Shown here: piece after piece, positions 607-57,812 of the stretch
How positions within the stretch are numbered: position 1 is the stretch's first letter
Layout of the letters: every line of letters begins with the position of its first letter
Assembly: GCA_003194525.1 (NCBI GenBank)
Contig: NBIV01000167.1
Span: 1-64,000, forward strand
Source: Gracilariopsis chorda
Lineage: Eukaryota > Rhodophyta > Florideophyceae > Gracilariales > Gracilariaceae
Length of the DNA stretch: 64,000 nt
Reading direction: 5' to 3'
Program-made: the position numbers and the translations under genes
The notes under the pieces: model-generated
Told to the model about the DNA's origin: nothing
Seen by the model: only the letters and a program-made list of their open reading frames with translations
Databases searched by the model: none

Positions 607-623
607 AGAGAAGACTCCCTCAG

Positions 624-2798: not shown

Positions 2799-2903
2799 GA
2801 GAAAATACCGTTACGACGGGAAACGATCACGGAACTTCCGGTGAATGAAAACAAACCTCGTAAGAGGGAAAGCAAAAACCGATTCTAAGTCAGGAGACCA
2901 CTT

Positions 2904-17200: not shown

Positions 17201-17241
17201 GGTGTCATCTCTCCGGACGGAGGTAAACACTCACCAGGCGT

Positions 17242-36032: not shown

Positions 36033-36051
36033 TGACAAGAGTGCTTAGTCG

Positions 36052-36718: not shown

Positions 36719-37578
36719 TGTGGTGCAATGCCCGGCGACGGGAGAACACCACGAAGACGTTCGGGATCTTCCTCTCACGAGGTGAACGCAGTAGCAGAGC
36801 CCTTCCAGGGATGACACGACTAGGTCGGTTGTAAGCCGAGGTCAGCCTTCACGACTTGCGTAGGAAGGGGTAGCTGGCAAACCAGAGAAGCTCCGTCCAC
36901 ACGGTGTATTGCTCCAAGTAGGAGGCACGAGTCCAAACGGTGTCGCACACGACAATGAGTCGGTGTGAGCCGCGGATAGCGGGGGCTACCCAAAAAGGGG
37001 GAAAAGGAAAAGGAAAAGGAATAGGGAAGTGAGGGGAAAGGGGGCGAGCCACAAGAGGGACTCGATGGATGTCAGCAGGGCCGGATGAAACAGTATACAC
37101 GGCGAAGCCACAACTGTGAGTAGACTGGTATCCCAGAAATGGGTTCTGTTAAGCGAGCAAGGGGGTTGAACAAACCGTATGCAACGGGATACCTCTCCGT
37201 GGTGGAGTCGAGTACCGCCGAAGGCGTGAATGTTCAGAGCCAAGTCCTTGGTTAGACAGCCTTGTTGGGGAAGTTTACTGAGGTGCAGCGGCGGTTGCCG
37301 CTACACTAAGTACAGTAGACTACCCAGTGTAATAACTAAACAAATAAATAAATAAATAGAATATTTCTAACCATGTATCCACTACAGTACCACCACCCGT
37401 GTGACACGTGAGCGAGCCGTTGCCACGGCGCATTCCGGCTATGCCGTGCACCACGTGTATGCCCACTGTCGCCGCATTGCTCCTGTTCATAACAGTGTAG
37501 TAAGTGCCATCCCCGATGTATCGGAAATTATGAACCAGTGCCTGGAATCCCCCCCTCTTGAGAAGGGCGTGCACTACA
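36719..37578 (-). repeat. Gypsy B 3' LTR (860 bp)
   Basis: TGTGGTGCAATGCCCG to GCACTACA. The other LTR (46473-47325 plus 57801-57807) is also 860 bp. By eye they differ at about five positions (for example near 36916, 37048, 37074, 37089 and 37258). Confidence 0.92.
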
Positions 37579-37598
37579 CATCCCCCTCCTTAGACGGA
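37579..37598 (-). promoter_or_regulatory. Gypsy B 3' polypurine tract
   Basis: On the minus strand TCTAAGGAGGGGGATG ends exactly at the LTR boundary. This is the expected plus-strand primer. The 18 bases GCTCCGTCTAAGGAGGGG recur inside pol at about 40035-40052. Confidence 0.85.
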
Positions 37599-38862
37599 GC
37601 GACAACCTCAACGAGGGGCGGCGCGACGGCGAACGAACAACGTAAAAACACGGCCTCCTCCGGTGTTCCGGTCAACCAACCGTCAGCCTCAGCGCGAGGA
37701 AGGCCCCTGGGTAAGTTTCGATCACGTCTTCCCACGCGTCCGCGGGTTGTAGCCACTGTAGTCCACCATCCCGGTCATCCGGTTCGTTCGCGACTCTGCT
37801 CGTGCGGCTCTTGCCCTCTCAGGGCGTTCCCTGGGCATCAGGCTTTCTCCGCACGAGTGCAAGCGAGCCCAGGCGTCCTGGTGCACTCCCCATTGGGGCG
37901 TATTGACGCTTCGATCACCATCCGCCCGTTACCTGGGAGCGCCCGTTCTCAGCGTAGTTCAACTGATAGGGGCCCTCAGTGCTTGCTAAAACCTCCCTAA
38001 GGGAGCATTATCTCAGAACGTGGGAGCTTTCCGCGGGAAATGAGCGGCTTCCAGCGGTCCACACCGGGAATTACCGGGGTCAGACCGGTCCAAGGCGCGA
38101 AACGCGAATAACTTCCGATTCAAGACAGCTGCAGCTTATCAGAGTCGTCGGCGTACTCTCGGGATGAAGACCTGTCGAATGAGACCCTGCAAGCAGGAAT
38201 TGAGCTCCCAGAAGTGGGTTAGACAAGACCTGTTCAGTAGGGCTTCTTCGAAACCAGTCGAACTGGAAAAGTGCCATAACTTTGGAACCAGCCGATAAAA
38301 TCGGAATCTGTCTTCACCGAGGTACTGGGATAGGTCTAAAAAAACCTATTACCAAACAATTTTGGAAACGGAGGTCAACCGACCAAGTTAGCCGATTTTT
38401 CAGTGGAAGCCGTTCATACGGTACTGTAGAGCCAGAAGTCCTGGTGACGGGGAAGTCTGACCGTAGCCATACGGAGTTGCGCAGCGTGGCTGCGAGTACA
38501 CCAGATGTTCTGGGAGCACAGCAGCCGTCGTGAGACAGCAACATCGCCCAGAGATGGGGTACAGTACCGGAGGTCCGGAAACTGACATCCATCTTAGATG
38601 GTTAGTAGTGTAGATAAAAACTTCAATCCTTGAAAAAGGTGGTGCGTACGAAAACAACACACCGTCATCGATGGGAAAAACCGTGCAAGCGGGAGCCTTG
38701 GGGGGGGGCGTACCAGCTTGCTGGATGAAAAACCATCGGTAGTTTGATCCGAAAAACGATTGCTTCGGCGGCGGCCGACTACGTCGGTATAGCCGCAGTG
38801 TGCGGGACGTCCCCGAGTGGGAGCGGTCCCAATTCCTTACTTCTCTCATCCGTCGTGACGGG
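37599..38862 (-). other. Gypsy B region between pol and PPT, no gene
   Basis: About 1.26 kb with no credible ORF on either strand. It is densely filled with the small inverted repeats. The equivalent region of Gypsy A carries an antisense ORF that is absent here. Confidence 0.6.
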
Positions 38863-39885
38863 TTATCCCACTTGGGCGTTACACAGCGTAGCTGGCGTAG
38901 CGGTTCCCGCACGGCGGTGATATTGGACCACTTTGGATCGTGGGAGATGCTCGATAGGCTCCCACGTGTCCCAGTTCGGGTCGTAGCCGTACCAACGGGA
39001 GCGGTATTCCCACACGCCATATCCGTTATAACGGTGTCCCACGACTGGGTCGAGAATATATTCTTGGATGAAGACTTCCCGGCCTTGCCGTGTTGTGGTT
39101 ACACCGCTTGCGGTGCGCGTGCCCTCATGAGGGAAAATGTCCCGTAACAGGGTATCCGGGGGCCAAGTCCGGTCGACGGCGTCTTCCCCGCGAGGGGCCG
39201 CAGGTCCATCATCGTGGTAATCGGCTTGCACCTTGAGGCGACGAGGTTCATTCCGTGCTGACGGTAGCGCCTGCGCGTGTCCCAGAGGGGTGCTTCCGTG
39301 CTGCACGGTGAATGGCACAGGCGGCGCCTCCCTAATCTTGGGTTCACGTGACGTCAGTGACGGTTGGCGGCCATGGGGCGTGGTATGATCCGCCTCCCTG
39401 TCTAGGGTATCTCCCCACGGCGACGCCGTGCGTTGCGTGTGCGACGCTCCGTGGTCCACGGTGACTTCCTTCTGTAAACTCCCCAGTGGGGCGTGTGCAG
39501 ATGGTAGAGAGCCCGGCGACTTGGGTGAAATTTCCTGAATCGGGTTTTCCATGCCGTCCTCGACGGTAGCGCCATCCGGAACGACCGGTTGGTTACTGGT
39601 GATGGTACCAGGGTCTACCGAGACGCTCGGATTGCGCGCGTGTGATCGCGATGGTGCGGAGACTTCCTTCCCCTTCCCAGGGCGTGCGGTCCCGTTATCA
39701 ACGGTTTGTGCCTTTGCCGAAGCGTCCTCTTCGGTAGAGGGCACTCTTGACGAGTCATGGCGTGTGTTCCCCTGCTGGGGCTTGCCACTGGCATCCAGCG
39801 CAGCTTGTTTAACACCTTCGCGTCCATTTGCGTCCTTCGACGGTGTCGATCGCGACGTGGCCGCTACCGCGGAGGGTTCCGTCAC
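38863..39885 (-). pseudogene. Gypsy B pol, C-terminal linker and chromodomain
   Basis: A 340-residue frame of low-complexity linker followed by a C-terminal chromodomain (VVGHRYNGYGVWEYRSRWYG then DTWEPIEHLPRSKVVQYHRR). It is in a different frame from the preceding integrase piece because of the one-base deletion near 40035. It aligns at its end with the last 70 residues of Gypsy A pol. Confidence 0.85.
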
Positions 39886-39986
39886 TGACGGGGACTGCGC
39901 GCCGATGTTGCGAACGGAAGGGGCACTGTTGGCGGTGTCCTGCGACTGCGCTGGAGCGCTAGCGTTGCCAATCCGTGTCTCACGGC

Positions 39987-41696
39987 CTAAGTCCCGTTGC
40001 GACGGCGAATTACCCGCGATAGCGCGGCTTTCCTCCCCTCCTTAGACGGAGCTACGGGGCGACGAAGACTTCGTGAAGTTACCGTGTGATGGTGGAAGAT
40101 CCCGTTTGACGGTAGATGAGAGCGGCCAGGAAGGCCGTTGGGGTCCGGCGTAGCCGGGTCTTCCGAAGTGAACGGAAGGTCTGAGAGGCCCCGGGAGGGG
40201 TGTTGTAGCACGGTAGGCCGTGTCACCACCGGTGTATCGGATGCAGAGCCATATTCCAGCGTAGGATCCAGCGTAGCTGGTGCAGCCTCAGTCGAGGGTG
40301 GCGGTGCTAGCACGATGCGATCGCGAGATAACCGCTCATTGGCGTCACCCATTTCCACAACCACTGTACCCGTCGTGACGGAGATAACCTTGAAAGGACC
40401 ATCTGCCACAGGCGAGAGCTTATGGCGCTTCTCCCTTTCAGGGTTGTAATACTCCTTGCGGACGAATACGAAGTCCCCGGAGTTGATCTGTTCCGGTTTG
40501 CTACCTCGCAAGCGAGCATCGAAATTCCGTTTGTAGACGGCTTGAGCGCGGTCCATCGCCTTCCGCGCTGCGGGTACCAGCTTGGTCAGCCATGTTTTCC
40601 ACTTCTGGCGGTAATCCTTCACAGAAGGGAACGCGTCTAACGTAGGTTGGGATTCCAACGCCATTGGCGGGGGTGTCCGTGAAAGGACCAACTCGAAAGG
40701 GGATATTCCAGTAGTCCGGTGTACCTGCGTATTGTACGCAAAGGTCACGGCATCCGTGTAGAGATCCCAGGTCTTGGGGTGGTCAGCCGTGTAAGCACGG
40801 AGAGCTGCGAGCATTGTCCGGGTAAACAGCTCGACCTGCCCATTAGACTGATGATACGTGGTCGTGAAGAGATTCTTCACGTCCAGTATCCGACAGACGT
40901 CCTGGAAAAATCGCGATGCGCACTGTTTCCCGTTGTCGGAGAGTAGCTCCAAAGGAGGTCCGTAGGCAAACACCCAATGCCGCACAAAAGCGTGAGCGAC
41001 CGTGTAGGCGGTAATCCTCTTTAGAGGCACTGTCCGAACTAGTTTCGAGAACCTGTCCGTAATAACGAGTAGGAACTTGTTACCTCTCCTGGTAGAGAGC
41101 AATGGTCCGAAAATGTCAATTGCGACAAACTCGAGCGGCGCTCTGGCGGGGAATAGCTTCATCCGTTTGGAGTTCTTCCGGAGTTTGACCCGGTTCTTCG
41201 CGCATTGCGTGCAAAACCGCACCGTAGCGTAGCAATCGACCGCCATGGCGGGCCAGTAGAAATCCCTGCGAAGGGTTAGATAAAGCTTCCTCCCACCGGA
41301 GTGTCCACCGAGTTTCGGGTAATGCGAAAGATGCAATATCCGGTTCTGTAGCGTGTGCGGTACCACAACTTGTGGGATAGCCTCGACGGTCCTCACGAGG
41401 TAACCAATGTCGTTCACCCCGAAGGGGAGATTCTCTCCGCCGTTGAGGCGTGCACGTATCCTTGTACAGAAGGGGTCCCCGAATTGTTCTCGGATCATTT
41501 CCTTGGTCTCAACCGGTACATAATTTCCCGGTATGGGCTTCTCAGAATCCTCGCTCGAGGCCAGTAAGTCGTCGTATTCAGAGTCCAATTCCCAGTCTTC
41601 TGGCCATTCCGGATCTTCTGGCGTATCTCCGTTCACCATGTAGCACGGTATCTCATCGTCATCCTCATTGGCGAGGGCTTCCCCCTCCGTGGGCAA
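39987..41696 (-). pseudogene. Gypsy B pol, integrase part
   Basis: Continues the pol frame directly after the TAG stop at 41700-41702. It holds the zinc-binding region (HLSHYPKLGGHSGGRKLYLT ... FCTQCAKN) and the integrase core (FVAIDIFGPL, LLSDNGKQCASRFF and the glutamate in SNGQVELFTR). The GPF-type end (VADGPFKVISV) follows. The usual HPQ of the H-P-x-C-N-G-Q-V-E motif reads HQ here. The frame ends after SKEG because one C is missing in the internal PPT-like run. Confidence 0.87.
40029..40052 (-). other. Internal PPT-like copy 1 of Gypsy B, site of a frameshift
   Basis: Plus strand CCCCTCCTTAGACGGAGC, identical over 18 bases to the 3' PPT flank at 37583-37600. The run has four C where Gypsy A (50493-50522) has five, and this deletion breaks pol. 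Confidence 0.75.
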
Positions 41697-41699
41697 ACG

Positions 41700-44201
41700 C
41701 TACAGAGCGTCGGCTTGGGTGTTCTTCGCCCCCTTCTTGTAGATGACCTCGAAGTCAAATTCCGCTAAGCGGAGTCTCCACCGCATGAGGAGGCCAGATG
41801 GATCCGAGATGTTCATCAACCACCTCAATGAGGAGTGATCCGTGTAAACGGTAAAGTGAACTCCCATGAGATAGGGGCGGAGTGTCGACAAAGCCCAGAC
41901 AACGGCCAGACACTCCTTCTTTGAAACAGAGTAATTCCGTTCGTGAACGTTTAGCGAACGTGACCAGTACCCAATCGGGTGTCGCTCCCCGTCCGGGGTG
42001 GTCTGGAACAGAGCACATCCGACCTGATGGTCGCTCGCATCCGTGTCCACGGAGTATGGTAGTCCCGGTTTGGGCAACGCCAGGATTGGTGCTGACATGA
42101 CAGCCTCCTTCAAGGAGTTGAAAGCAACACTTTGAGGGGAGGTAAGAGGGTCCAGTTTAGGTGGTTGTCCCTTCCGCAAGAGCGCGTTGAGAGGAGCTGC
42201 AACGTCCGAAAAGTTCGGGATAAACCGTCTGTAGACGTTGACCAGCCCTAAAAAGGAGCGCAGTTCCGTTTGAGTACGGGGTTCCTTCGCCTCCGCGAGG
42301 GACTTGACTCGAACGTCTTCGATTGACAACCGTCCTGGACGGATTATGTGCCCAAGATACTTGATGGTGTCAGTGAAAAACTCGCACTTCCTCAGCTTGA
42401 GGGTAATTCCTGCGTCACGCAGCACGGTCAACACGTCTCGGACGTCGTCTAGATGGTCATCCATGTTGTTCGAGAAGATGATAATGTCATCCAGGTAGAC
42501 CAAACAGGTCCGCCACTTAAAGCGGCTCATCAAAATGTCGATGGCCCGCTGAAAGGTGGCGCGTGCGTTGGTTAAACCGAACGGCATCCGCTTAAAGCGG
42601 TACGATCCTGCATGGCAGACGAAAGCCGTTTTGTCGCGGTCCTCCTCCCGAACAGGGACTTGCCAATTTCCCCAATTGGCGTCCAATGCTGTGAACACAG
42701 TGGCGCTCCCCAGGGAGTCAATACACTCGTCTATACGAGGGATAGGATACGTGTCCCGTACCGTCACGGCATTGAGCCGGCGATAGTCGATACAGAACCG
42801 CCAGGTTTTATCGCTCTTTAAGGCCATTACAACTGGAGATGCCCACGGCGACTGAGCCGGTTCGATAACTCCAGCTCGGAGCATCTTCTCCACTTGGAAC
42901 TGTTCTTCTTCCCGAGCCTTCGGTCCTGCCCTGTATGGGGGTTGCGCGACGGGTCGCATATTCGCCAACACGTCAATCCGATGTTCGGTTGCAATAATCT
43001 CCCCAAGGGAGCCATCCCACATAGTGGTGAACTCCCGTAACATGTCTCGCAGACGTTGACGGTGTGACTCCGGTACATGACCGAAGTCAAGGTCCTCCAG
43101 AGCCTTGATAGGATCGATTCTATCGTAGCTCGTAGGCACGTGCGTTCCTGTTTCAGGCGTTGATTCCGAGGTGCTCGGCGAATTGTCCGCTGGCGCGGTA
43201 GCCTCCTCCCCCTCCTTAGACACGACGACGTCGGACTTCGAATCCTCTGCGGAGGCAACAATTCCGAGGACATCGGCAGCGGTAGTCTTCGTAGGAAGCA
43301 TGGCCAGCGGGTGCGGCGTAACTGATCCAATCACTTGGTTCTTCACCGGATACTGGGGTTTTGTGCCAAGATTGGCGACAAGAAACCGGAACGGGACATC
43401 CGGAGTCACATTGACAATTCCGTTTGCAACGGCAAGTTGATACTTATCGTACAACGAGGCAAGGGGTTGCACAATCCGAACACCGTGTTGACTGGAATTG
43501 ACCTGCACCATTACCTGAGTCTCAGGGGGAATAGAAACCGATGCCGCAACGCGGAGCTTCGTAGACTCCCGTGCAGCGGGGGGTGGTTCCTGCGCGGCAG
43601 GTAGCGGAACTTGCTTCTGCGATGCCCGCTTCAGCGGTCGGCGAACTGTAGGAACCGTGGTTCCATCCTCGAGTTCTACTGTTCTCCGCCGTGGCCGGAT
43701 TGCCTCGATGAATCGGTCACAATAATCACATCCCAGTATAACTGGCGCAGCCAACGACCAACAAACAATAAAGTCGAGTTTCACCACGAAAGTGCCCAAG
43801 CGTACGACCAATTCGATGACACCCACCGTTTTCAACGGATTTTTATTCGCGTCCGCGACGTCCGGAACCGTTGTAGAACGGATGCGACACCGCAAGAGCG
43901 GGGGTAAAATCGACTCGTCGATGAAGTTCGGGCCAGCACCTGTGTCCAGGACTGAAAGATATCTCACCATAAACTGAGGGCTCAGGCCAAGGTCAGCGTA
44001 AACCTTGTAGTTGCGCTTGGCCATGACCATGATTCTATCCGGGATCCGGTTGTTTCTTACCCGTATCCACGGTCGACGCAAAACCCCAAGGTGCTTCGAA
44101 TCCGCGTCAGCGGTGTCTTCCTTTGTCAGGATTTTCACCGGGGAGCGAGGCGGCGGCGCCTCGGGCGTCGTCAACCTCAACTCTGAGGACGCCTCTCCCA
44201 A
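41700..44201 (-). pseudogene. Gypsy B pol: protease, reverse transcriptase, RNase H (833 aa, then TAG)
   Basis: Aspartic protease with D86 in VLDTGAGPN. RT runs from WRFCIDYRRLNAVT through DANWGNWQVPV and MPFGLTNARATFQRAID to the active site CLVYLDDIIIFS. RNase H follows with YSVDTDASDHQVGCALF and YTDHSSLRWLM. Compared with Gypsy A, a serine codon after ADAL is TAG at 41700-41702, cutting off integrase. The first codon used here is TTG. Pol is probably made by -1 frameshifting from gag and not from its own start. Confidence 0.92.
43204..43226 (-). other. Internal PPT-like copy 2 of Gypsy B
   Basis: Minus strand GTCTAAGGAGGGGGAGGAGG, encoding SKEGEE upstream of RT. It shares its core with the 3' PPT. 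Confidence 0.65.
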
Positions 44202-44218
44202 AGGGGAGACTCCCTCGA

Positions 44219-46369: not shown

Positions 46370-46454
46370 AATGACCCGTCCAGACGGAAAGAACCGAAAC
46401 TTCCGGGAAAAGGCCTCGAAAGAGGAAACAACACACGATAGTGGTTAAAACTTC

Positions 46455-46469
46455 TAGGTCGGGAGACCA
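46455..46469 (-). promoter_or_regulatory. Gypsy B putative primer-binding site
   Basis: On the minus strand, three bases after the LTR, TGGTCTCCCGACC. TGG matches a tRNA CCA end, but I could not name the tRNA. Gypsy A and C have TGGTCTCCTGACT. Confidence 0.55.
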
Positions 46470-46472
46470 CTT

Positions 46473-48132: not shown

Positions 48133-48152
48133 TATCCCCCCCCTAAGACGGG
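48133..48152 (-). promoter_or_regulatory. Gypsy A 3' polypurine tract
   Basis: Minus strand CTTAGGGGGGGGATA ends at the LTR boundary. Confidence 0.85.
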
Positions 48153-48188
48153 AAAACGACCGCGGACGCGGAGGATTCCCAGACGAAA

Positions 48189-48938
48189 ATGGGTGATAAA
48201 AGCGCGTGCGCCGTCTCCGGTTCTCCGGTAAATCCCTCTGCACCAGAGTCAATACCTCCTGCTACTGCAGCTGTCATTTCCTCGCCTCGCCTTCGCGCTT
48301 CCTCGTCACCGAGCGTACTCCGACAAACAACATCAACGACCCTCGAAGAGGGAGAAATGAACAACGACAACAACATCAACAACCACAGCCAACCTCCGAG
48401 GTCTCTCGGGCGATATACCACCGGTTTCCGGTCGGTTCCCCTGCCTCAGGGCGATCAACCTCCGGTACAACCGGGAAATACGGCTGCTGAAGCCGACCAT
48501 CCCTTCACATTACCACCTTCGGTGGGATCCTCCGAGGAGGCGCGCGAGCTTCGCGATACGCCCCGGCATGTGCCGGAAGACCACCCGGTGGGGTACGTCG
48601 ATTCCGACGACTACTACCGCGCATACGGCGGGGATGACCCAATGGTCGATAACGAACCGGAAGAACCCGGGGAGATGGACGTAGAGGAAACCGGCGCTAG
48701 CGCGGAAGCTTTCCCAGAGGGGGCATCTCCGGCCGAGCCGGCTGCTGACCCTTCGGCGGCAAGTGCCGGACCTTCTATCCCCAGCGAGGTGACGGCGAAT
48801 GAAAACGAAATCATCGCACGTTTCCTCCGGGGTGCCGGTCTTAGCGCTGCCGAGGTATCGGGGGATGTCACCACCACGGCGGACGCGTTGGCCTACCGCC
48901 TCGCTGGTGGTTACGCCCCGGACGATGGGGGTGAGTGA
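48189..48938 (+). CDS. Antisense ORF of Gypsy A (249 aa), unknown function
   Basis: An ATG-started frame on the strand opposite gag-pol, beginning 57 bases inside the 3' LTR and ending 191 bases before the end of pol. The protein is acidic, rich in Pro, Ser, Ala and Glu, with an Asn-rich patch (NNDNNINNHSQ) and a C-terminal stretch (NEIIARFLRGAGLSAAEVSG) that could fold as helices. I recognise no domain. The equivalent region of Gypsy B has no such frame. It might be transcribed from an antisense promoter in the LTR, or be a chance open frame in GC-rich sequence. Confidence 0.45.
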   Translation: MGDKSACAVSGSPVNPSAPESIPPATAAVISSPRLRASSSPSVLRQTTSTTLEEGEMNNDNNINNHSQPPRSLGRYTTGFRSVPLPQGDQPPVQPGNTAAEADHPFTLPPSVGSSEEARELRDTPRHVPEDHPVGYVDSDDYYRAYGGDDPMVDNEPEEPGEMDVEETGASAEAFPEGASPAEPAADPSAASAGPSIPSEVTANENEIIARFLRGAGLSAAEVSGDVTTTADALAYRLAGGYAPDDGGE

Positions 48939-49129
48939 AACCTCTGGTCCAGTTTCCTGGTTCCTCTTTCCCTGGCTATGCCAGTTAGTGTAGTGTAGTA
49001 TTGTGGGGAGCTAGCTGCTCCCCTGAATAAACTTTCCCGTTTAGAACGGTGCTTCTCGGTTGAGTTCCCCGTCTTCGACGGACTTTGCCTTGTTATCCTT
49101 TCCTTTCGCTCTCCGCTCGCGCGGCAACG

Positions 49130-52100
49130 TTACCCAACTTGGGCATTGACCAGCGTGGCTGGGGCTGCAGTTCCCGTCTGACGGTGGTATCGCAGAACCT
49201 GCGACCGTGGGAGGTGTTCAATTGGCTCCCACGTATCCCCACTGGGGTCGTACCCGTACCAGCGGACGCGGTATTGTAGAATACCATCCTGGTCCCAGGT
49301 GTGTCCGACAAGTCGGTCTACTACGAACTCTCGTTCGTAGACCTGCCGGCCGTGCCGGGTGGTGGTTGTAATCCCTGGCGAGGGTTGCCCGCGGTGCGGT
49401 ATAATGTCCCTTAGCAGGGTGTTCGGCGATAACTCCGACGTTGCCGTGCGCTGTCCTAGTGGCCGCTGCTCATGCGGGAAAATATCCCTCAAGAGGGTGT
49501 GTGGTGCCACGGTTTTCACCGGCAAGTCGTTCCCCAGAGGGGTGTCGTTGTTTCCGTCTTCACGGTAGGCCGGGCGAACCGCCAGTCGGCGGGGGACTTG
49601 GGTTCCGCCTTCGCGGTTGAGCGCACGAACCGCGAGTTTGCGGGAAGATGACCGCTCCTGCGGGATCGGCATTTCCACAATCCCCTGGGGGGTCCCGTGC
49701 GACACGGTGATTGGGTGGCAAACCGCCTCCCTGTCAGGCGCACGAGCGCTCTGCACCATACGTTCCGGCGATGCCGTGGTGTCCCCGGCTACTGACGGGT
49801 TGCCTGGGGCTAACTCCAGTACACCGGTATTTTGGTCAAAATTCCCCTCTGGGGGGTTCCGGGCAGGTGCCGATGACACCCTTTTCAGGGGAATTGCCGC
49901 TGAGCGCAGTGCACCATCTCCGTGAGGAGGAGCAGCGTCCGGTACGACCGGTTCCGAGCGTGCGATGGCGCGCGTTATTCCCGAGTTTCTCGGTTCTTCG
50001 CCGCAGCGATGCGGGGGATGGCGCAAATTATTCCCCGTAGCGGGGGCTTTGATTCCGTCAACGACGGGAGGCGTTTCCGGTGCTTGCAAGCCAGGGCTTA
50101 AAGCTTCGACTGCAGCTTGGCCGCCTTTTTCCCCAAGAGGGGTGTGGGTATTCCCCTGTGAGGCCGGCGTATCTGGGCGCCCCTTCTCCGCAGGGCGCGG
50201 GTCTGATCGACCTGATTGAACCGCTTCCGCGGGGACTTCCGCCAACGGCGGCTTCGAGGCATCGGGCGATTGCCTTTCCGCTGCTGCGGTATTGGAGTGA
50301 GGCTTCTCGTTTTCCCGGGACAAACGGTGTATTTGCCGCTTTTGCAGGGCCTGTGCGTCTGGTTCCTGTTGCACAGCACTTCCCGGGAACGGGGGATTAG
50401 TGTCGCGTGACATACTCCGTGCTCCACGGTCAGTGTTCCGTATGTTACGGTGTGTTTCCCGTTGCGACGGTGATATCGTTCCTCGAAAACGAGTCTTCTC
50501 CTCCCCCTCCTTAGACGGAGCGGCGGGATAAGGGATAACATTCCCCGCCTGGCGGGTATAGATGCGCGCCAGTGGGGCAGACGTGGTAGGGGCGGGCGCT
50601 GAGGGGCCCGAATTACCCGGCTGAGCCGGTGAGTCCGACAGAGTCGGTAGGTCTGAGAGTCCCCGGCTGGGGTGTGGTAGTACCGTAGGTCTAGTACTCC
50701 CGGATTGTTCCGGTGTAGCGGAGTCCGTAGAAACGGGGTTGCCTGGATCCAGGACTACCTCTGACGAGGGAGGAGGGGCGAGGACAACACGATCACGGGA
50801 AATCCGTTCGTGCGTGTCCCCCATCTCTACCACGACAGTGTCGGTGTTAACAGAGATCACCTTGAAGGGTCCATCCGCCACAGGCGAGAGTTTGTGACGC
50901 TTCTCCCGTTCCGGGTTGTAGTATTCCTTCCTGATGAAGACGTAGTTATTTGCCCGAATCGGGGATGGTTTTCCTCGCACGCGAGCGTCAAAATCCCGCT
51001 TGTAAGCGGCTTGGGCCCGTGCCATAGACTTCCGCGCAGCGGGGACCAGCTTGGAAAGCCATCGCTTCCATTGCTGCCGGTAGATACCCACAGATGGGAA
51101 ATTGTCCAAGGTAGCTTGGGGTTCCAGCGCCACAGGCGGGGGTGTTCTAGATAGAACTAACTCGAATGGCGAAACTCCGGTAGTCCGGTGTACCTGCGTA
51201 TTGTACGCGTAGGTTACCGCATCAGCGTAGAGATCCCAATTCGTTGGGTGGTCAGCGACGTAGGAACGTAACGCCGCGAGTAACGTCCGGTTAAACCGTT
51301 CAACTTGCCCATTACACTGGGGGTGGTAGGTAGTCGTGAACAAGTTCTTGACATCGAGGATGCGACAAACATCCTGGAAGAACTTGCTCACGAACTGCTT
51401 CCCGTTGTCAGAGAGCACCTCTACAGGGGGACCGTAGACAAAAATCCAGTGCGTCACCAGAGCCTGGGCCACCGTGAGAGCGGTTATCCTCCGAAGAGGG
51501 ACAGTCCGTACCAGCTTAGAAAAGCGGTCGGTAATGACAAGTAGAAACTTGTTTCCACGTTTCGTGGTGAGTAATGGTCCGAGAATATCGATCGCGATAA
51601 ACTCGAGCGGCGCCCTTGCGGGGAATAGTTTCATCTTCTTCGCATTTTTGCGGAGTTTGACGCGATTCTTCGCGCATTCGATACAAAACCGCACAGTTGC
51701 GTAGCAATCCACCGCCATTGCGGGCCAATAGAAATCCCTTCGCAGGGTTAGGTAGAGTTTCCTCCCACCTGGGTGACCTCCAATGGGGGCGTAGTGTGAT
51801 AGATGTAACACCCGCGATTGCAGGGAATGTGGTACCACAATCTGTGGGCGGGCTTCGACCTTTCTTACGAGGTAGCCTTTGTCGTTTACCCCGAAAGGGA
51901 GATCTTCACCACCGTTGATACGGGCACGAATTCTCGTACAGAATGGGTCTCCGAATTGTTCTCGGATCATTTCTTCCGGTGATACCGGTACAAAGTTTCC
52001 CGGTAACGGGTTCTCAGATTTATCTCGCGATGCGAGTAGTTCGTCAAAGTCAGCATCCTCGTCCCAGGTTTCTGGCTTAGCCTCGACGGCATTTTCCGGA

Positions 52101-54691
52101 TCATCCGGGTCTATAGCCATGAAGCATGGGACTTCATCATCCTCCGTTGGGAGTGCTTCCCCACTTGTGGGTAACCGCGATAAAGCGTCGGCCTGAGTGT
52201 TCTGCGCACCCTTTTTATAAATGACTTGAAAGTCATATTCCGCGAGGCGGAGTCTCCAGCGCATGAGGCGTCCCGACGGGTCGGAGATATTCATCAACCA
52301 CCTCAATGAGGAATGATCCGTGTACACGGTGAAGTGAATTCCCATAAGGTAGGGGCGCAGAGTGGTCATCGCCCATACGACGGCGAGGCACTCTTTCTCC
52401 GATACGGAGTAGTTCCGCTCATGAACATTGAGCGAACGTGACCAATAACCAATTGGATGTCGTTCCCCCTCGGGGGTGGTTTGAAAAAGAGCACACCCGA
52501 CTTGGTAGTCGCTCGAGTCCGTATCTACGGAGTATGGCAACCCAAGTTTTGGGAGATGTAGGATTGGTGCTGATGTGACAGCCTCCTTTAAGGAGTTAAA
52601 AGCTTCCGATTGCTCGGGCGTAAATGTTCCCAGTTTTGGGGGGTTCCCCTTTCGCAACAACGCGTTCAGGGGCGCTGCAGTATCCGAAAAGTTCGGGATA
52701 AACCGTCGATAGACGTTGACCAGCCCCAGAAAGGAGCGCAGTTCCGTTTGAGTACGGGGTTCTTTCGCCTCAACGAGGGATTTGACTCGAGCTTTCTCGA
52801 TCGCTAACCGTCCAGGACGGATAATGTGACCCAGATACTTCACAGTATCTGTGAAAAACTCGCATTTCCTCAACTTGAGGGTAATTCCCGCATCGCGGAG
52901 TACGGTCAGCACGTCTCGGACGTGAGTGAGATGGTCGTCCAACGAGTTGGAGAAGATGATAATATCATCAAGGTAGACCAGACAACTCCGCCACTTAAAG
53001 CGGTTGAGTAGAATATCTACTGCACGCTGAAAGGTGGCGGGGGCGTTGGTTAACCCAAATGGCATCCACTTGAAGCGGTACGTTCCTGCGTGGCAGGTGA
53101 ATGCGGTTTTCTCGCGATCCTCCTGTCTGACAGGTACTTGCCAGTATCCCCAATTGGCATCGAGAGCCGTGAAAACGGTGGCGTCTCCAAGGGAGTCAAT
53201 GCACTCGTCCATACGAGGGATGGGGTACGTGTCCCTAACAGTCACGGCATTGAGCCGGCGGTAGTCGACACAGAACCTCCAGGTTCCGTCAGCCTTTAAA
53301 GCCAGTACAACTGGGGATGCCCAGGGCGATTGAGCGGGCTCAATCACACCTGCGCGGAGCATCTTGTCCACCTGGGACTGCTCCTCTTCCCGAGCTTTCG
53401 GACCTGCCCTGTAAGGGGGTTGTGCAACCGGTCGCGCACCGGGGATTAAATCGATCCGGTGTTCCGTTGCATCAATCTCGCCAAGCGAGCCATCCCACAT
53501 TGTGGTGAATTCCCGTAACATAGTACGGAGTTTGTTGCGGTGCGACTCTGGCACGTGGCTGAAGTCCAGCGCTTCAAGTGCTTTTTCCGGATCAATCCGG
53601 TCATTGCTCGATGGAGCATTGTCCTGTGGAACAGGTGTGGTTCGCAATTCCGAGTTACTCGGTATGTTCGACGCTGAAGTAGCGGTTTCCTCCCCCTCCT
53701 TAGACTTGACGTCTTCGGACGGGGGGGTGAACTCCTCAGAAGAGGTGGTAACTCCGAGTACATCGGCGGCTGTCATCTTCGTTGGCAGCATTCCCATAGG
53801 ATGGGGGGTTACACTCCCAATTACTTGGTGTTTGACCAGATACTGGGGGTGTTTGCCAAGGTTGGCAACCAATATCCGGAAAGGAACATCCGGGGAAATG
53901 GAGACAATTCCATTAGCCAGCGCCAGCTGGGATTTCTCGTACAACGAGGCGAGGGGTTGTATAACCCGAAGACCGTGTTGACGGGAATTTACCTGTACCC
54001 AGACTTGGGACTCAGCCGGTATAGAAACCGAGGCAGCGACGCGGAGCTTGGTGGACTCGCGGGACGCGGGCGGTGGTTCCTGCGCAGCAGGGAGCGGAAC
54101 TTGTTTCCGAGAGGACCGCTTTAGCGGGCGGCGAACAATCGGAACCGACGATCCGTCGTCAAGTTCTACACGCCTGAGGCGGGGCCTGATTGCGTCGACA
54201 AATCTGTCGCAGTAATCACATCCCAGTATGACTGGTGCTGCCAGTGAACGGCAAACGATGAAGTCCAACTTCACCACAGATGTACCAAGTCTCACGACGA
54301 GGTCCACTGTGCCCACCGTTTGTAACGGATTGTTGTTCGCATCCGAAATGTCGGGGACCGCGTCAGAGCGGATACGCGACCGCACAAGCGGGGGTAACAA
54401 TGATTCCACGACAAAGTTGGGACCTGCGCCTGTATCCAGGACGGTGAGAAACCTCACCATAAACTGGGGGTCAAGGCCAAGGTCGGCATAGACCTTATAA
54501 TTGCGCTTGGCCAAGACCAAGACTCTACCGGGAATCCGGGGATTTTTACTCCGTATCCACGGGCGACGCAACACACCAAGGTGCGCAGAGTCCGCGTCAG
54601 CGGTGTCTTTCCTCGAGAGGACTTTCACCGGGGAGCGAGGCGAGGACGCCTCGGGCGCCAACAGCCTCGTTTTTGAGGACGCCTCTCCCAA
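49130..54691 (-). CDS. Gypsy A Pol polyprotein (1853 aa): protease, RT, RNase H, integrase, chromodomain
   Basis: One uninterrupted frame. Protease D86 in VLDTGAGPN. RT about 430-610, with WRFCVDYRRLNAVT near 470 and active site YLDD at 573-576. RNase H with YSVDTDSSDYQVGC near 719 and YTDHSSLRWLM near 790. Integrase zinc region about 962-1007 (HLSHY ... FCIECAKN). DDE core near 1034 (FIAIDILGPL), 1097 (VLSDNGKQF) and 1129 (NGQVERFNRT). GPF-type end near 1276 (VADGPFKVIS). Then comes a ~500-residue Pro/Ser/Arg-rich linker and a chromodomain at 1782-1838 (DGILQYRVRWYGYDPSGDTW). The listed first codon is TTG. The frame is open upstream and overlaps the gag end at -1, so frameshifting is likely. 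It would copy and insert the element; the chromodomain should direct it to marked chromatin. Confidence 0.95.
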   Translation of the reverse strand: MGEASSKTRLLAPEASSPRSPVKVLSRKDTADADSAHLGVLRRPWIRSKNPRIPGRVLVLAKRNYKVYADLGLDPQFMVRFLTVLDTGAGPNFVVESLLPPLVRSRIRSDAVPDISDANNNPLQTVGTVDLVVRLGTSVVKLDFIVCRSLAAPVILGCDYCDRFVDAIRPRLRRVELDDGSSVPIVRRPLKRSSRKQVPLPAAQEPPPASRESTKLRVAASVSIPAESQVWVQVNSRQHGLRVIQPLASLYEKSQLALANGIVSISPDVPFRILVANLGKHPQYLVKHQVIGSVTPHPMGMLPTKMTAADVLGVTTSSEEFTPPSEDVKSKEGEETATSASNIPSNSELRTTPVPQDNAPSSNDRIDPEKALEALDFSHVPESHRNKLRTMLREFTTMWDGSLGEIDATEHRIDLIPGARPVAQPPYRAGPKAREEEQSQVDKMLRAGVIEPAQSPWASPVVLALKADGTWRFCVDYRRLNAVTVRDTYPIPRMDECIDSLGDATVFTALDANWGYWQVPVRQEDREKTAFTCHAGTYRFKWMPFGLTNAPATFQRAVDILLNRFKWRSCLVYLDDIIIFSNSLDDHLTHVRDVLTVLRDAGITLKLRKCEFFTDTVKYLGHIIRPGRLAIEKARVKSLVEAKEPRTQTELRSFLGLVNVYRRFIPNFSDTAAPLNALLRKGNPPKLGTFTPEQSEAFNSLKEAVTSAPILHLPKLGLPYSVDTDSSDYQVGCALFQTTPEGERHPIGYWSRSLNVHERNYSVSEKECLAVVWAMTTLRPYLMGIHFTVYTDHSSLRWLMNISDPSGRLMRWRLRLAEYDFQVIYKKGAQNTQADALSRLPTSGEALPTEDDEVPCFMAIDPDDPENAVEAKPETWDEDADFDELLASRDKSENPLPGNFVPVSPEEMIREQFGDPFCTRIRARINGGEDLPFGVNDKGYLVRKVEARPQIVVPHSLQSRVLHLSHYAPIGGHPGGRKLYLTLRRDFYWPAMAVDCYATVRFCIECAKNRVKLRKNAKKMKLFPARAPLEFIAIDILGPLLTTKRGNKFLLVITDRFSKLVRTVPLRRITALTVAQALVTHWIFVYGPPVEVLSDNGKQFVSKFFQDVCRILDVKNLFTTTYHPQCNGQVERFNRTLLAALRSYVADHPTNWDLYADAVTYAYNTQVHRTTGVSPFELVLSRTPPPVALEPQATLDNFPSVGIYRQQWKRWLSKLVPAARKSMARAQAAYKRDFDARVRGKPSPIRANNYVFIRKEYYNPEREKRHKLSPVADGPFKVISVNTDTVVVEMGDTHERISRDRVVLAPPPSSEVVLDPGNPVSTDSATPEQSGSTRPTVLPHPSRGLSDLPTLSDSPAQPGNSGPSAPAPTTSAPLARIYTRQAGNVIPYPAAPSKEGEEKTRFRGTISPSQRETHRNIRNTDRGARSMSRDTNPPFPGSAVQQEPDAQALQKRQIHRLSRENEKPHSNTAAAERQSPDASKPPLAEVPAEAVQSGRSDPRPAEKGRPDTPASQGNTHTPLGEKGGQAAVEALSPGLQAPETPPVVDGIKAPATGNNLRHPPHRCGEEPRNSGITRAIARSEPVVPDAAPPHGDGALRSAAIPLKRVSSAPARNPPEGNFDQNTGVLELAPGNPSVAGDTTASPERMVQSARAPDREAVCHPITVSHGTPQGIVEMPIPQERSSSRKLAVRALNREGGTQVPRRLAVRPAYREDGNNDTPLGNDLPVKTVAPHTLLRDIFPHEQRPLGQRTATSELSPNTLLRDIIPHRGQPSPGITTTTRHGRQVYEREFVVDRLVGHTWDQDGILQYRVRWYGYDPSGDTWEPIEHLPRSQVLRYHRQTGTAAPATLVNAQVG
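50493..50522 (-). other. Internal PPT-like copy 1 of Gypsy A
   Basis: Plus strand CCTCCCCCTCCTTAGACGGA. The minus strand reads TCTAAGGAGGGGGAGGAG in the linker of Pol (SKEGEEK). It is closer to the 3' PPT of Gypsy B than to its own. Confidence 0.7.
53688..53710 (-). other. Internal PPT-like copy 2 of Gypsy A
   Basis: Minus strand TCTAAGGAGGGGGAGGA, encoding SKEGEE between protease and RT, at the same relative place as 43204-43226 in B. Confidence 0.65.
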
Positions 54692-54708
54692 AGGGGAGAC
54701 TCCCTCAG

Positions 54709-56883
54709 TTAGTTTTCCGCCTTCGGCGGTGGGTTGGTTTCCTCGACAACGAGTGCTTCATCCCGTTGACGGGGGTTTCTATCCGCATAAGCGGGGGTTG
54801 CAACGGATGGTTGCGTGATCTCCCGAATCGGGGTGTATGAAGCTTGCCGCGCACGCGGGGTCTGTGGTAGGGCGTGAGAAAAGTCCGTTTTAGCACGGAG
54901 GTAGGAAGCCGTCGGGACGGAACGTTTCTCCTCTGGAGTGAGGGCCTCATAATTTGCCACCACCTTGGCCATATCCTTCAGTGAACAAATACACTGAGGA
55001 GAGGTATGGCCATGGGCATAGCACAGGTGGCAAATGAGAGCCAGCACCGCGACACGCGGATTATTATTCCGAGTATCGGAGAAGCGAACCGCAGGGCGGG
55101 TGTCAGTCCATCCAGGCCGTTGATAACGGGATTGACCGTTTGAAAACGGGAGTCGTTGGGGTTGAACCCGACTGTTACCACCGTATAGAACGGGATCTTC
55201 TGTTCCCGTATCATGGGTCATCTCCGTCGTTGACGGTAACTCACTGGTGGGTATCGACACACCATCCCCCTGCGCTAAATGCACGGTATCAAATCCCTGT
55301 CCAGGGTTCCCATCCGCGGTGAGCGGGAGAGAGGAAGCTTCGCTTTCCAGCAACAACGCCTTGGCGGATTTAGACCGATTGTTCGGAGTTCTTGCACGAA
55401 GTGCATCCCCTTCCGCTCGAGCGTGTTGGACCAGCTCGAGGTAGGTGATCCTTCGCTTGTCCTCCCGATAACGGGTAACTAAACTCCGGATTGCCGGGTC
55501 AAGACCATCAATGAACATGGTACTGCGCTCCCCAGCGGGGTATACGTTACCACATCTGTGGAAAGCCTTGTTAAGGCGCACCGAGTAATCGGTCTCGGTC
55601 TCTCCAGCACGCTGGCGTGTATCTCGCAAAGCGAGGATAGCCTGCTGAATAGCGGTGTTGGTGGCGTAGGAGCGCAGAAAATACTGCACAGCCTCCGGCC
55701 AGCAAGTAACTCCTCCCTCGGAGGCGCGAGAAGATCCTCGGACAGAGGTGTATTGGTCCTCGGCCACTCCCCGTAAGAAATACGGTAAAGCCAAATAGGC
55801 TTGTCCCTCATTCATACCGAGGATATCGGCCTCCGCTACAAAGCGGGATAGGAAATCCAGTACTAGGACTGGGTCCTCTCCAGTAAAATACTGGTTGCGG
55901 AGCGAGAGCTGCATTCGCTTAATGCATTCTCGCACCTTTCCCGTACCACGGGGCGTACGTCCAAGTGACGAATCTTCAAGCCGGTAGTACCGGTATGATA
56001 AAAGCTTCCGATAATCCGGGTTTGTCGGTTTCAATTCCCGGAGACCGGGGTGTCTTCTCCCCTTCTGGCGGGTTCGGACCACACCTTCAGTGGCCGATGA
56101 CCGCTTCGAGCGGGAGGAGTAGCCTCGCTTCTCGTCCTCCGAGTCGGAGTCCGAGGAGCTCGAGCTAACCGAATGGTTTCGGGGTGAGTCCGACGATGTC
56201 GAAGAATCGGAGTCCGAATATTTTCGGTGATGTTTCCGTCGGTGACGGCGTTTCTTCTTCCCAGCAAGCTGGTCGTTGTGCGATGCCTCGTTTACCGGAT
56301 CACCCGGGGATGGTTTGTCCATGAGGACGAACTGCTCCAGCGTCTCCAGGCGGGCACCAATCCGATCAAATCGGGCTTCAACTCCTTCGATGAAGGCGGC
56401 GGGTTGTCCCAAACTCTCCAACACGGAGTTGACGTCAGACCGTAAAATACGGAGCTCCTCGGCGACCTCCTTTACGGGGGTTGCCGAGACCACCTCTTGG
56501 AGGGATTTTAGTTCCCCTACAAGGGTGTCATGGGCGGTCCACAGAGCGCGGACCTGGGATTCCAGGGAAGTTCCCTGGGGGGTGTTATCACCCGTTCCAC
56601 GGGGGCTTGAAGCCGCGACAGCGGGAGCAGGCCGGGGTGCCTGGGGCACTGCGGCAACAGCCGGAGTCGATGCTGCATTCCCCTGCGGGGGTGATAACGA
56701 GGGCAAAAGGAGGTTCCGGGGTTCCCGGTCGGGGGTATCATTCCGCGATGAAGCGGCGCCAGCACGGCTGGAACTTGTCCGTATAGGGATACGGGGTACG
56801 AACCGAACTTCGGAAGTGTCCGCGTTGTCGCGGGAGCGACTACGCGTAACCACTGGCTCCGCGTCGGAGGGATTTCTCGACAT
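54709..56883 (-). CDS. Gypsy A Gag (724 aa)
   Basis: ATG at 56883, 106 bases from the LTR. An alanine/proline-rich head is followed by a helical segment (LESQVRALWTAHDTLVGELK), then a Lys/Arg stretch (KKKRRHRRKHHRK) and a Ser/Asp tract. The conserved Gag core comes next (RNQYFTGEDPVLVLDFLSRF), and a CCHC zinc knuckle at about 617-630 (CHLCYAHGHTSPQC). It ends TAA at 54709-54711. Pol lies at -1. It is nearly identical to the decayed copy at 624-2798. Confidence 0.94.
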   Translation of the reverse strand: MSRNPSDAEPVVTRSRSRDNADTSEVRFVPRIPIRTSSSRAGAASSRNDTPDREPRNLLLPSLSPPQGNAASTPAVAAVPQAPRPAPAVAASSPRGTGDNTPQGTSLESQVRALWTAHDTLVGELKSLQEVVSATPVKEVAEELRILRSDVNSVLESLGQPAAFIEGVEARFDRIGARLETLEQFVLMDKPSPGDPVNEASHNDQLAGKKKRRHRRKHHRKYSDSDSSTSSDSPRNHSVSSSSSDSDSEDEKRGYSSRSKRSSATEGVVRTRQKGRRHPGLRELKPTNPDYRKLLSYRYYRLEDSSLGRTPRGTGKVRECIKRMQLSLRNQYFTGEDPVLVLDFLSRFVAEADILGMNEGQAYLALPYFLRGVAEDQYTSVRGSSRASEGGVTCWPEAVQYFLRSYATNTAIQQAILALRDTRQRAGETETDYSVRLNKAFHRCGNVYPAGERSTMFIDGLDPAIRSLVTRYREDKRRITYLELVQHARAEGDALRARTPNNRSKSAKALLLESEASSLPLTADGNPGQGFDTVHLAQGDGVSIPTSELPSTTEMTHDTGTEDPVLYGGNSRVQPQRLPFSNGQSRYQRPGWTDTRPAVRFSDTRNNNPRVAVLALICHLCYAHGHTSPQCICSLKDMAKVVANYEALTPEEKRSVPTASYLRAKTDFSHALPQTPRARQASYTPIREITQPSVATPAYADRNPRQRDEALVVEETNPPPKAEN
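54712..54718 (-). promoter_or_regulatory. Probable -1 frameshift site in Gypsy A gag
   Basis: Codons GCG GAA AAC TAA give G_GAA_AAC, one base away from the canonical heptamer of Gypsy B, followed by the TCTCCC-cttt-GGGAGA stem. Pairing in the P site would be weaker than in B. Confidence 0.5.
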
Positions 56884-56969
56884 GAGAAAATACCGTTACG
56901 ACGGGAAACGATCACGGAACTTCCGGTGAATGAAAACAAACCTCGTAAGAGGGAAAGCAAAAACCGATT

Positions 56970-56985
56970 CTAAGTCAGGAGACCA
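56970..56985 (-). promoter_or_regulatory. Gypsy A putative primer-binding site
   Basis: Minus strand TGGTCTCCTGACTTAG, three bases after the LTR. Same position as in B. tRNA not identified. Confidence 0.55.
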
Positions 56986-56988
56986 CTT

Positions 56989-57795
56989 TGTGGTGCAATG
57001 CCCCAAAGGGGAAAAACACCGAAAGACGTCCGGGATCTTCCTCTCACGAGGTGAACCCAGTTGGGTAGAGCCCTCCCAGAGGTGTCACGGCGAAGCCGGT
57101 TTGTAAGACCAGGGACACCTGTCGCGACTCGCGCAGGGAGGTGAAGGCGAAGAATCGGTATCCGCGTGAGCGGGGCGTGATCCTCAGTAGAGGTATGTTT
57201 CCACGTAAGTGGGGGTGTGTGAGCGGATGCGCACACGAGGGCCGCGGATAGCGGGAGGTGCTACCCTAAAAAGGGGAAAGAGGAAGGACGAGTGGGTCGC
57301 GAGAGCGACGAGTAGATACGGCGATGCCGGTGGACGGGACTCCCTATACAGGGCGAAACACCAATATGATTGGAACAATTAGTACTCCCAATGATGGGTC
57401 TCCTTTAGATGTGCAAGGGGGGTGAACTTCCGTACACTACGGTGCTTCCCTCCAAGGAGGAGTTGAGAACACGCGGAGGCGGTCAAGCTCAGAGCCAATT
57501 CCCCAGGTTGGGGTCCCTTGTTGGGGAAGGTTTACTGGTGCGACGGCAGTGTGCCGTCGCACTAAGTACTAGCTTCCCAGAAATGGGCGTGAAAATACTA
57601 AATAATATTAACTAAAATACTCCACATTCCGTGGCAACATCCACTACTGTGGCCAACCGCCAATTGACCCAAAACCGTGTCCCACGTGTCCATACCCACC
57701 ATTGTGGGGCGTAGTTCATATACACACTACACAACCGATAATATCGGGAAAGCGTTCAAGTACCCAGAATCCCTCCCTGAGGGCGTTGCACTTCA
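56989..57795 (-). repeat. Gypsy A 5' LTR (807 bp)
   Basis: Partner of 47326-48132 with three mismatches by eye. Confidence 0.95.
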
Positions 57796-57800
57796 GCGTG
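57796..57800. repeat. Target site duplication GCGTG, right of Gypsy A
   Basis: Matches 47321-47325. The B LTR resumes directly after it with CACTACA (57801-57807). Confidence 0.93.
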
Positions 57801-57807
57801 CACTACA

Positions 57808-57812
57808 TGAAG
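57808..57812. repeat. Target site duplication TGAAG, right of Gypsy B
   Basis: Matches 36714-36718. The Copia polyprotein resumes here. Confidence 0.92.

What the first reader, a model, noticed from the sequence alone, without database searches (positions are those of the whole stretch)
36719..57807. Carpet of tiny CCNN-loop-NNGG inverted repeats across LTRs and genes of one Gypsy family
In Gypsy A, B and C, perfect 4-6 bp stems with 1-6 base loops follow one another every few tens of bases. Examples from the A LTR: CCCC-aaa-GGGG, CCTC-tcac-GAGG, CCGC-gtga-GCGG, CCAC-gtaa-GTGG, CCAAT-atg-ATTGG, CCGTA-cac-TACGG, CCCCA-ggt-TGGGG, CCGAT-aat-ATCGG. In the 807-bp A LTR I count by hand roughly 20 stems of the form CCNN-(2-5)-NNGG, where equal base frequencies predict about one. 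The same pattern continues through gag and pol and is not evident in the Copia genes 34476-36718. I know of no retrotransposon family described with this property. It could reflect RNA folding, a palindromic protein-binding array, or quasi-palindrome correction by template switching during reverse transcription.
Basis: seen in the sequence. Interest (0 to 1): 0.93.

Follow-up and report, generated by a model that had tools for sequence, protein, structure and literature searches.

The report
Mini-hairpin carpet in red-algal retrotransposons
A group of jumping genes in a red seaweed carries hundreds of tiny, evenly spaced hairpin-forming sequences from end to end, kept by natural selection even inside their protein genes, which looks like a previously undescribed structural code whose purpose is still to be tested.

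Summary
CCNN-loop-NNGG stems are about ninefold above dinucleotide shuffles in inner element B (259 vs 27.7±5.1) and sixfold above protein-preserving shuffles in its pol (119 vs 18.5±4.4). Host, Copia and piggyBac genes show no excess. The hairpins span 11-14 nt (4-5 Watson-Crick pairs), lie ~21 nt apart and are as dense in coding as in non-coding parts. Stems are conserved where loops have drifted. Among 25 copies, inherited changes avoid stems but post-insertion changes do not: selection. Related Gypsy families in this Gracilaria-type red alga have hairpins of the same size with other preferred letters. Copia copies and 10 of 11 distant Gypsy loci lack the CC type. I found no described counterpart. 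Best guess, inferred: family-specific hairpins in genomic RNA read by the element's own Gag, about one per Gag; Ty3 packs ~20 bases per Gag (PMC6525542). Against simple RNA-fold models: G·U is tolerated no better than A·C, and predicted naked-RNA pairing is not optimised.

The parts
36719..57807 (-). Outer Ty3/Gypsy chromovirus 'A' (sense strand -), interrupted by B; LTRs 36719-37578 and 46473-47325 + 57801-57807; 5-bp target duplication TGAAG at 36714-36718 and 57808-57812
   Evidence: self-BLAST (LTRs 99.4% identical over 853 bp); boundary strings
47326..57795 (-). Inner Ty3/Gypsy chromovirus 'B', inserted in the last 12 bp of A's LTR; LTRs 47326-48132 and 56989-57795 (99.6% identical); target duplication GCGTG at 47321-47325 and 57796-57800
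   Evidence: 225 CC-type hairpins
1..3707 (-). Third copy 'C' (97.5% identical to B over 3711 bp), cut by the window start, LTR 2904-3707; same hairpin carpet
   Evidence: 97 vs 9.9 stems in 1-4000
49130..54691 (-). B pol ORF, 1853 aa: RT, RNase H, integrase (H2C2, rve), C-terminal chromodomain; 119 CC-type hairpins
   Evidence: Pfam, counts
54709..56883 (-). B gag ORF, 724 aa, CCHC zinc knuckle at residues 618-631; no Pfam hit itself, but 9 of its 34 listed homologues carry PF03732; 56 CC-type hairpins
41700..44201 (-). A pol, RT/RNase H part; 36 CC-type hairpins
39987..41696 (-). A integrase part of pol; 25 CC-type hairpins
44219..46369 (-). A gag; 31 CC-type hairpins
47326..48132 (-).
42588..42600 (-). 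Example hairpin CCGCTTTAAGCGG over the Y-R-F-K-R codons of RT in A; other families have CCGATTCATTCGG or TCGCTTTAAGCGA at the same codons
53066..53078 (-). Same site in B, CCGCTTCAAGTGG (one non-pair)

Best explanation
SHOWN: a clade of Ty3/Gypsy chromoviruses in this red alga carries an array of mini-hairpins (4-5 Watson-Crick pairs, loop mostly 3-4 nt, total 11-14 nt). In A and B, the only members read whole, it covers the full length with ~21-nt centre spacing; in the others it was seen in pol. The stems are held by purifying selection (tested on CC-type hairpins), and the preferred stem letters differ between families. INFERRED: the hairpins act in the element's genomic RNA as a repeated, family-specific recognition unit for its own Gag/nucleocapsid, about one unit per Gag, so that the RNA is coated, condensed and chosen over host RNA and over related families. 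This would be a retrotransposon counterpart of dispersed packaging signals.
For: The array runs through gag, pol, the region after pol and the LTRs, all of which are in the genomic RNA, at similar density (B coding 21.0/kb, non-coding 22.5/kb; A 14.1 and 16.8). Phasing near 21 nt: centre-to-centre peak means 20.8, 41.6, 63.5, 85.0; linkers of 6-11 nt preferred over both shorter and slightly longer ones. PMC6525542 (passages read) gives 540 Gag and, assuming two 5.2-kb genomes, ~20 bases per Gag for Ty3. Purifying selection on stems. Family dialects in one host: CC at pairs 1-2 in 49-63% of stems of A, B, F53 but 6-23% of F52, F56, F50, F49, F51; G at position 4 in 45-57% of F56, F50, F49, F51 but 23-30% of the others. 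This fits an element-encoded reader better than a host factor. Sense-strand mark: A follows the hairpin on the gag-pol strand (p=2e-23), also in non-coding B (32 of 61 vs T before in 9 of 61). Gag has a conserved zinc knuckle. Copia elements of the same genome lack the array.
Against: No binding or packaging data. G·U pairs are no better tolerated than A·C (observed/expected 26/67.9 and 27/66.6 vs 22/72.9 and 39/79.2; no consistent preference in seven stretches), unlike ordinary sense-RNA stems. Predicted pairing in 160-nt contexts (B 0.43, A 0.33) is no better than that of 17 chance hairpins in a shuffled sequence (0.43), and the mean MFE z-score is about -1.1 in B and -0.5 (sense) in A. No fixed loop motif in A, B and C pooled. 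The sense-strand A is absent in A's LTRs (3 of 13 and 3 of 10) and in F52 (8 of 27). The ~21-nt phase is clear in A, B and C but weak in F53, F52 and F56. The ~20-base figure is for yeast Ty3, a distant relative.
Confidence: 0.35

Rival explanations
1. Shield against host small RNAs: hairpins in both sense and antisense strands make small-RNA targets inaccessible and guides self-folding, and hinder annealing of sense to antisense RNA; the ~21-nt phase matches a common small-RNA length.
For: Pairing rule is strand-symmetric and Watson-Crick only; 21-mers fold better than shuffled ones on both strands (-3.21 and -3.34 vs -2.10 kcal/mol in B; control -1.31 and -1.34 vs -1.31).
Against: Only 21% of 21-mers and 39% of 30-mers hold a whole CC hairpin in B; does not explain family-specific letters, the CC/GG clamp, the sense-strand A, or avoidance of linkers under 6 nt; Copia elements of the same host lack it.
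Confidence: 0.2
2. Function in DNA: hairpins or palindromes used in single-stranded cDNA or in integrated double-stranded DNA (two helical turns = 21 bp).
For: G·U and A·C equally disfavoured; period close to 2 x 10.5.
Against: Spacings of three turns (~31) are depleted, the spread of spacings is wide (sd 2.4 nt), flanks are strand-specific, and 4-5 bp palindromes are not known to extrude from duplex DNA (recalled).
Confidence: 0.17
3. Another RNA-level role that acts on local or nascent hairpins: polymerase or reverse-transcriptase pausing, RNA stability, export or translation.
For: Similar density through coding and non-coding parts; the excess is strictly local, almost gone above span 16.
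Against: Family-specific letters and narrow size are not needed for a general effect.
Confidence: 0.2
4. Mutational origin: quasi-palindrome correction by template switching in reverse transcription, without function.
For: Would give perfect pairs and equal loss of G·U and A·C.
Against: Stem letters are conserved; shared:singleton changes 5:104 in stems vs 88:488 elsewhere (p=0.002); no shared doubly changed pair in conserved pol among 25 copies; does not give ~21-nt phasing or dialects.
Confidence: 0.05
5. Side effect of composition, codon usage or an assembly artefact.
For: 2-kb bins inside the elements are more GC-rich (0.54-0.60) than the rest of the window (0.41-0.53).
Against: Dinucleotide and codon shuffles; Gypsy loci L002 and L004 with GC 0.57 show no excess; 25 copies at separate places show it.
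Confidence: 0.01

Closest known systems
Ty3/Gypsy LTR retrotransposons, chromovirus type
   Same: Domain order RT-RNase H-integrase-chromodomain, LTRs with 5-bp target duplications
   Different: A carpet of uniform mini-hairpins under selection; 10 of the 11 distant Gypsy loci fetched here have no CC-stem excess and the eleventh a small unphased one; the passages of the Ty3 RNA structure paper that I read mention no such array (PMC11381356)
Dispersed packaging signals of single-stranded RNA viruses (Twarock/Stockley model)
   Same: Many varied hairpins spread over the genome with shared recognition features (PMC6281560, passages read)
   Different: No fixed loop motif found in A, B and C; ~21-nt phasing, near-constant 11-14 nt size and strict Watson-Crick stems; binding untested
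Genome-scale ordered RNA structure (GORS) of RNA viruses
   Same: Structure spread through coding sequence at synonymous sites (recalled definition)
   Different: Hundreds of near-equal, tiny, local hairpins; weak MFE z-score; no preference for G·U over A·C
Retrozymes, foldback elements, REP/BIME palindromes
   Same: Hairpins carried by mobile DNA (recalled)
   Different: Those are a few defined units or insertions, not a code laid over conserved protein genes (recalled)

Membership tests
Ty3/Gypsy chromovirus | RT-RNase H-INT order with C-terminal chromodomain | tested here: met
   B pol: RVT_1 466-624, RNase H 718-819, H2C2 953-1010, rve 1027-1124, Chromo 1789-1830
Ty3/Gypsy chromovirus | LTRs and target-site duplication | tested here: met
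Dispersed packaging signals | Many genome-wide hairpins sharing sequence features | tested here: met
   that the shared letters are recognised by a protein is not shown
Dispersed packaging signals | Specific binding by the coat/Gag protein and effect on assembly | not testable with these tools
   needs protein and RNA experiments
GORS | Folding energy clearly below composition-matched shuffles across the genome | tested here: inconclusive
   mean MFE z in 120-nt windows (22 each): B -1.15/-1.06 (sense/antisense), A -0.52/-0.94; control 0.05/-0.22 (21 windows), Copia 0.71/0.36 (5 windows)
RNA secondary structure under selection | G·U tolerated more than other mismatches | tested here: not met
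RNA secondary structure under selection | Compensatory double changes above control | tested here: inconclusive
   48 of 74 double changes paired, but control stems 24 of 43; clear single cases

The most novel reading that the evidence does not exclude
Each retrotransposon family writes its own hairpin dialect over its entire genomic RNA, one unit per ~21 nt, and its cognate Gag reads it, so that packaging is a lattice-like, family-private code rather than a single packaging site.
Probability: 0.3. Interest if true: 0.95.

Novelty: categorically new. Interest (0 to 1): 0.88.

Why it matters
If right, about a quarter of a 10-kb mobile element (CC-type hairpins cover 27% of B) is a structural code laid over protein genes, kept while other 4-fold sites drifted to near chance between families (loops 70 of 230, rest 1440 of 4996, CC stems 336 of 768 identical). 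It would make how Gag chooses and condenses its RNA, or how elements evade small RNAs, directly testable, with natural dialects in one genome as built-in controls. It also warns that synonymous sites in such elements are not neutral.

Tried and rejected
Covariation among the 25 B copies first looked strong (10 paired double changes shared by 4 or more copies); listing them showed that nearly all came from misaligned, divergent sequence 3' of conserved pol, mainly in the LTR, so I dropped that claim and repeated the test on conserved pol only. One search used copies in mixed orientation and is superseded. Covariation between families is suggestive but not above control stems. Copia locus L048 seemed to have hairpins; they match those of the B LTR, so I read them as a solo B LTR. 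I first took L049 and L051 for decayed copies (few CC stems); they have the array with other letters. L010, a distant Gypsy contig, has a small CC excess (15 vs 4.7±1.7) from scattered stems (12 by the stricter count). Rfam gave no hit at gathering scores. Ten paper searches were made; eight of them looked for a retrotransposon or red-algal element described with such an array and listed none that I could recognise as one; two searches were for Ty3 particles and red-algal small RNAs. The library holds open-licence papers only. Apart from passages of PMC6281560, PMC6525542 and PMC11381356 I saw listings and abstract starts only.
Full report
1. What is there. The finding covers two nested Ty3/Gypsy elements read on the - strand. 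The outer one (A) runs from 36719 to 57807 with target duplication TGAAG; the inner one (B, 47326-57795, duplication GCGTG) sits in the last 12 bp of A's LTR. Both lie inside a Copia element (matching pieces at 34126-34353 and 59644-59871, 97.8% identical). A third copy, C, fills 1-3707 and is 97.5% identical to B. B pol has RT, RNase H, integrase and a chromodomain. Gag has a zinc knuckle whose four metal ligands are invariant or nearly so in an alignment of 20 sequences (B and 19 of 34 homologues); 9 of the 34 carry PF03732. The window's subtilisin is 75% identical to a protein of Agarophyton chilense and 61% to one of Gracilariopsis chorda, so the host is a Gracilariaceae-type red alga (taxonomy); its assembly has 91.3 Mb in 1081 contigs.

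2. CCNN-(2-6)-NNGG stems against 60 dinucleotide shuffles: B 259 vs 27.7±5.1, A internal 149 vs 18.1±4.7, window 1-4000 97 vs 9.9±3.1; none of the eight other regions is above its shuffles beyond noise. Against 200 codon permutations that keep the protein: B pol 119 vs 18.5±4.4, B gag 56 vs 6.0±2.5, A pol 36 vs 5.5±2.5, A integrase 25 vs 4.6±1.8, A gag 31 vs 4.3±1.9, C gag part 22 vs 2.5±1.6; piggyBac 1, subtilisin 1, Copia 0 and 1, zinc-finger ORF 4 (vs 2.1±1.3), none clearly above. Stems start in all three codon phases.

3. Anatomy. Maximal stems are in excess mainly for total spans of 11-14 nt (B span 12: 132 vs 34 expected), with a small excess at 15-16 in B and C and values near expectation above. 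The outer pairs are C-G, C-G reading 5' to 3': given the second C-G and the inner pairs, an outermost C-G is 5-fold enriched (442 vs 89), the other three Watson-Crick types 0.6-1.1-fold. Inner pairs are of all four Watson-Crick types (2-4-fold), while G·U and A·C are both depleted to a similar degree. Centre spacing averages 20.8, 41.6, 63.5 and 85.0 nt for successive peaks. In double-length gaps a weaker hairpin often lies in the middle (score 5 or more in 50% of 26 gaps in A, 35% of 31 in B, 38% of 13 in C, vs 12-18% in shuffles). On the sense strand A follows the hairpin in 229 of 467 cases and T precedes it in 86 of 467 (p=2e-23). The pooled 467 include C, nearly a copy of B, so they are not all independent; A alone gives p=0.00015 and B alone 2.8e-16, but A's LTRs and F52 do not show it. 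Density is similar in coding and non-coding parts: B 21.0 and 22.5, A 14.1 and 16.8, C 21.8 and 24.2 per kb.

4. Selection. Between A and B, 4-fold degenerate sites are identical in 153 of 198 (0.77) stem sites of B hairpins, 21 of 59 (0.36) loop sites and 273 of 598 (0.46) others (p=3e-16); with A's hairpins 128 of 157, 15 of 43 and 304 of 655. Stems without the CC clamp show no significant effect (69 of 116 vs 349 of 682; 73 of 137 vs 344 of 660). C and G at CC/GG steps outside hairpin stems are identical in 93 of 187 and 111 of 207 cases, against 0.74-0.89 for C and G in stems. B and C differ at 6 of 753 stem sites vs 79 of 2949 others (p=0.001). Among 25 B copies of this genome (the 25 best places scored), changes seen in one copy only, which I take to have arisen mostly after insertion, hit stems of conserved pol as often as other sites (0.153 vs 0.137 per site), but changes shared by two or more copies avoid stems: shared:singleton 5:104 vs 88:488 (p=0.002), at third positions 2:40 vs 64:200 (p=0.002), at 4-fold sites 1:30 vs 36:107 (p=0.006). 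This fits purifying selection while the element multiplies and not a low mutation rate.

5. Beyond one family. I fetched 6 of the 29 places scored with a related pol. All 8 clade stretches looked at (A, B, L049-L053, L056; named F49-F53 and F56 below; L050 and L056 are probably one family, so at least five families) have an excess of stems of span 12-13. The codon-shuffle z-score was 9.5-14.8 in the eight coding stretches tested (B pol, B gag, A pol, F53, F52, F56, F50, F49; L051 not tested), against -0.9 to 1.0 in five control ORFs. The letters differ: CC at pairs 1-2 in A, B, F53 (0.49-0.63) against 0.06-0.23 in the rest; G at position 4 in F56, F50, F49, F51 (0.45-0.57) against 0.23-0.30; F52 has most C at 2-3 (0.26). 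The RT tree groups A with B (100/98), F56 with P0032 (96/99) and, less surely, F53 with F52 (89/94). Hairpins of any letters sit at the same codons more often than by rotation: 34 for B and A RT (0.9 expected), 17 for B and F53 (1.1), 12 for F53 and F52 (0.9), 8 for F53 and F56 (1.0), 7 for B and F56 (1.2), but only 3 for F52 and F56 (1.1; maximum of 300 rotations 5). At the Y-R-F-K-R codons of RT, A has CCGCTTTAAGCGG, F53 CCGATTCATTCGG, F52 and F49 TCGCTTTAAGCGA, F51 TCGCTTCAAGCGA, while B has one non-pair. Summed over family pairs, 4-fold identity is 336 of 768 in CC stems, 70 of 230 in loops, 1440 of 4996 elsewhere and 282 of 884 in stems without CC; some single comparisons with F56 show none of this (B to F56 23 of 76 vs 83 of 277; F56 to F53 5 of 22 vs 93 of 332). 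Ten of 11 further Copia loci and a multi-copy Copia (L054: 0 vs 3 expected) lack CC stems, the eleventh (L048) having what I read as a solo B LTR. Of 11 distant Gypsy loci from other records, 10 show no CC excess. Stems of any letters by span were tested only in Copia L054 and L043 and Gypsy L001 and L002, without excess at spans 12-13.

6. Results against my reading. G·U is not consistently favoured over A·C, so a plain sense-RNA stem model is strained. Predicted pairing of these hairpins in context is no better than that of chance hairpins (0.43 in B and 0.33 in A vs 0.43, the last from 17 hairpins only). Compensatory changes exist, but their rate (48 of 74 double changes) is not significantly above control stems (24 of 43; p=0.43). 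The ~21-nt phase is weak in the other families. There are no expression, probing or binding data.

7. Mechanism. Any explanation must cover element-wide coverage, narrow hairpin size, ~21-nt spacing, strict pairing, variable loops, family-specific letters within one host, and a sense-strand flank. A recognised RNA unit read by each family's own Gag covers most of these, and for Ty3, the Ty3/Gypsy particle of known structure that I looked up, ~20 bases per Gag are reported (PMC6525542). Small-RNA shielding explains the strand symmetry and the length but not the letters. A DNA-level role explains the pairing rule but not the flanks or the missing three-turn spacing. I put 0.35 on Gag recognition. 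That the array exists is near certain; that it is selected I hold at about 0.95.

8. Novelty. The carrier is an ordinary Ty3/Gypsy chromovirus (membership tests met). The array has no described counterpart that I could find in eight searches of open-licence papers; the nearest ideas are dispersed viral packaging signals and GORS, each failing, inconclusive or untested on a defining feature. I therefore rate the feature, not the carrier, as categorically new.

Noticed in passing
48189-48938 (+): Antisense open frame of 249 aa between B pol and the LTR; no Pfam family and no significant relative elsewhere in the window.
   Followed up: partly
54692-54708: The gag and pol open frames of B (ends as listed mechanically) are in different frames with a short gap, so pol expression may involve a frameshift, reinitiation or the like.
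   Followed up: no
47321-47325 and 57796-57800: B inserted in the last 12 bp of A's LTR, giving a near-tandem pair of related elements.
   Followed up: yes
L048/L055 (genome C301): What looks like a solo B-type LTR next to a Copia element, recognised by its hairpins.
   Followed up: partly
3' of conserved pol and LTR in L012-L036: The B copies split into two sequence types with different hairpins in this region, perhaps subfamilies that swapped LTRs.
   Followed up: no
7306-8061 (-) and 61894-63117 (+): Two similar-looking C2H2 zinc-finger open frames toward either end of the window (by eye; Pfam run on the second only).
   Followed up: no
4001-22700: Some excess of 5-bp stems of any letters (178 vs 120.4±14.0), without the 11-14 span signature (5001-22000).
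   Followed up: no
L010: Distant Gypsy-bearing contig with a small excess of CC stems, scattered rather than phased.
   Followed up: partly
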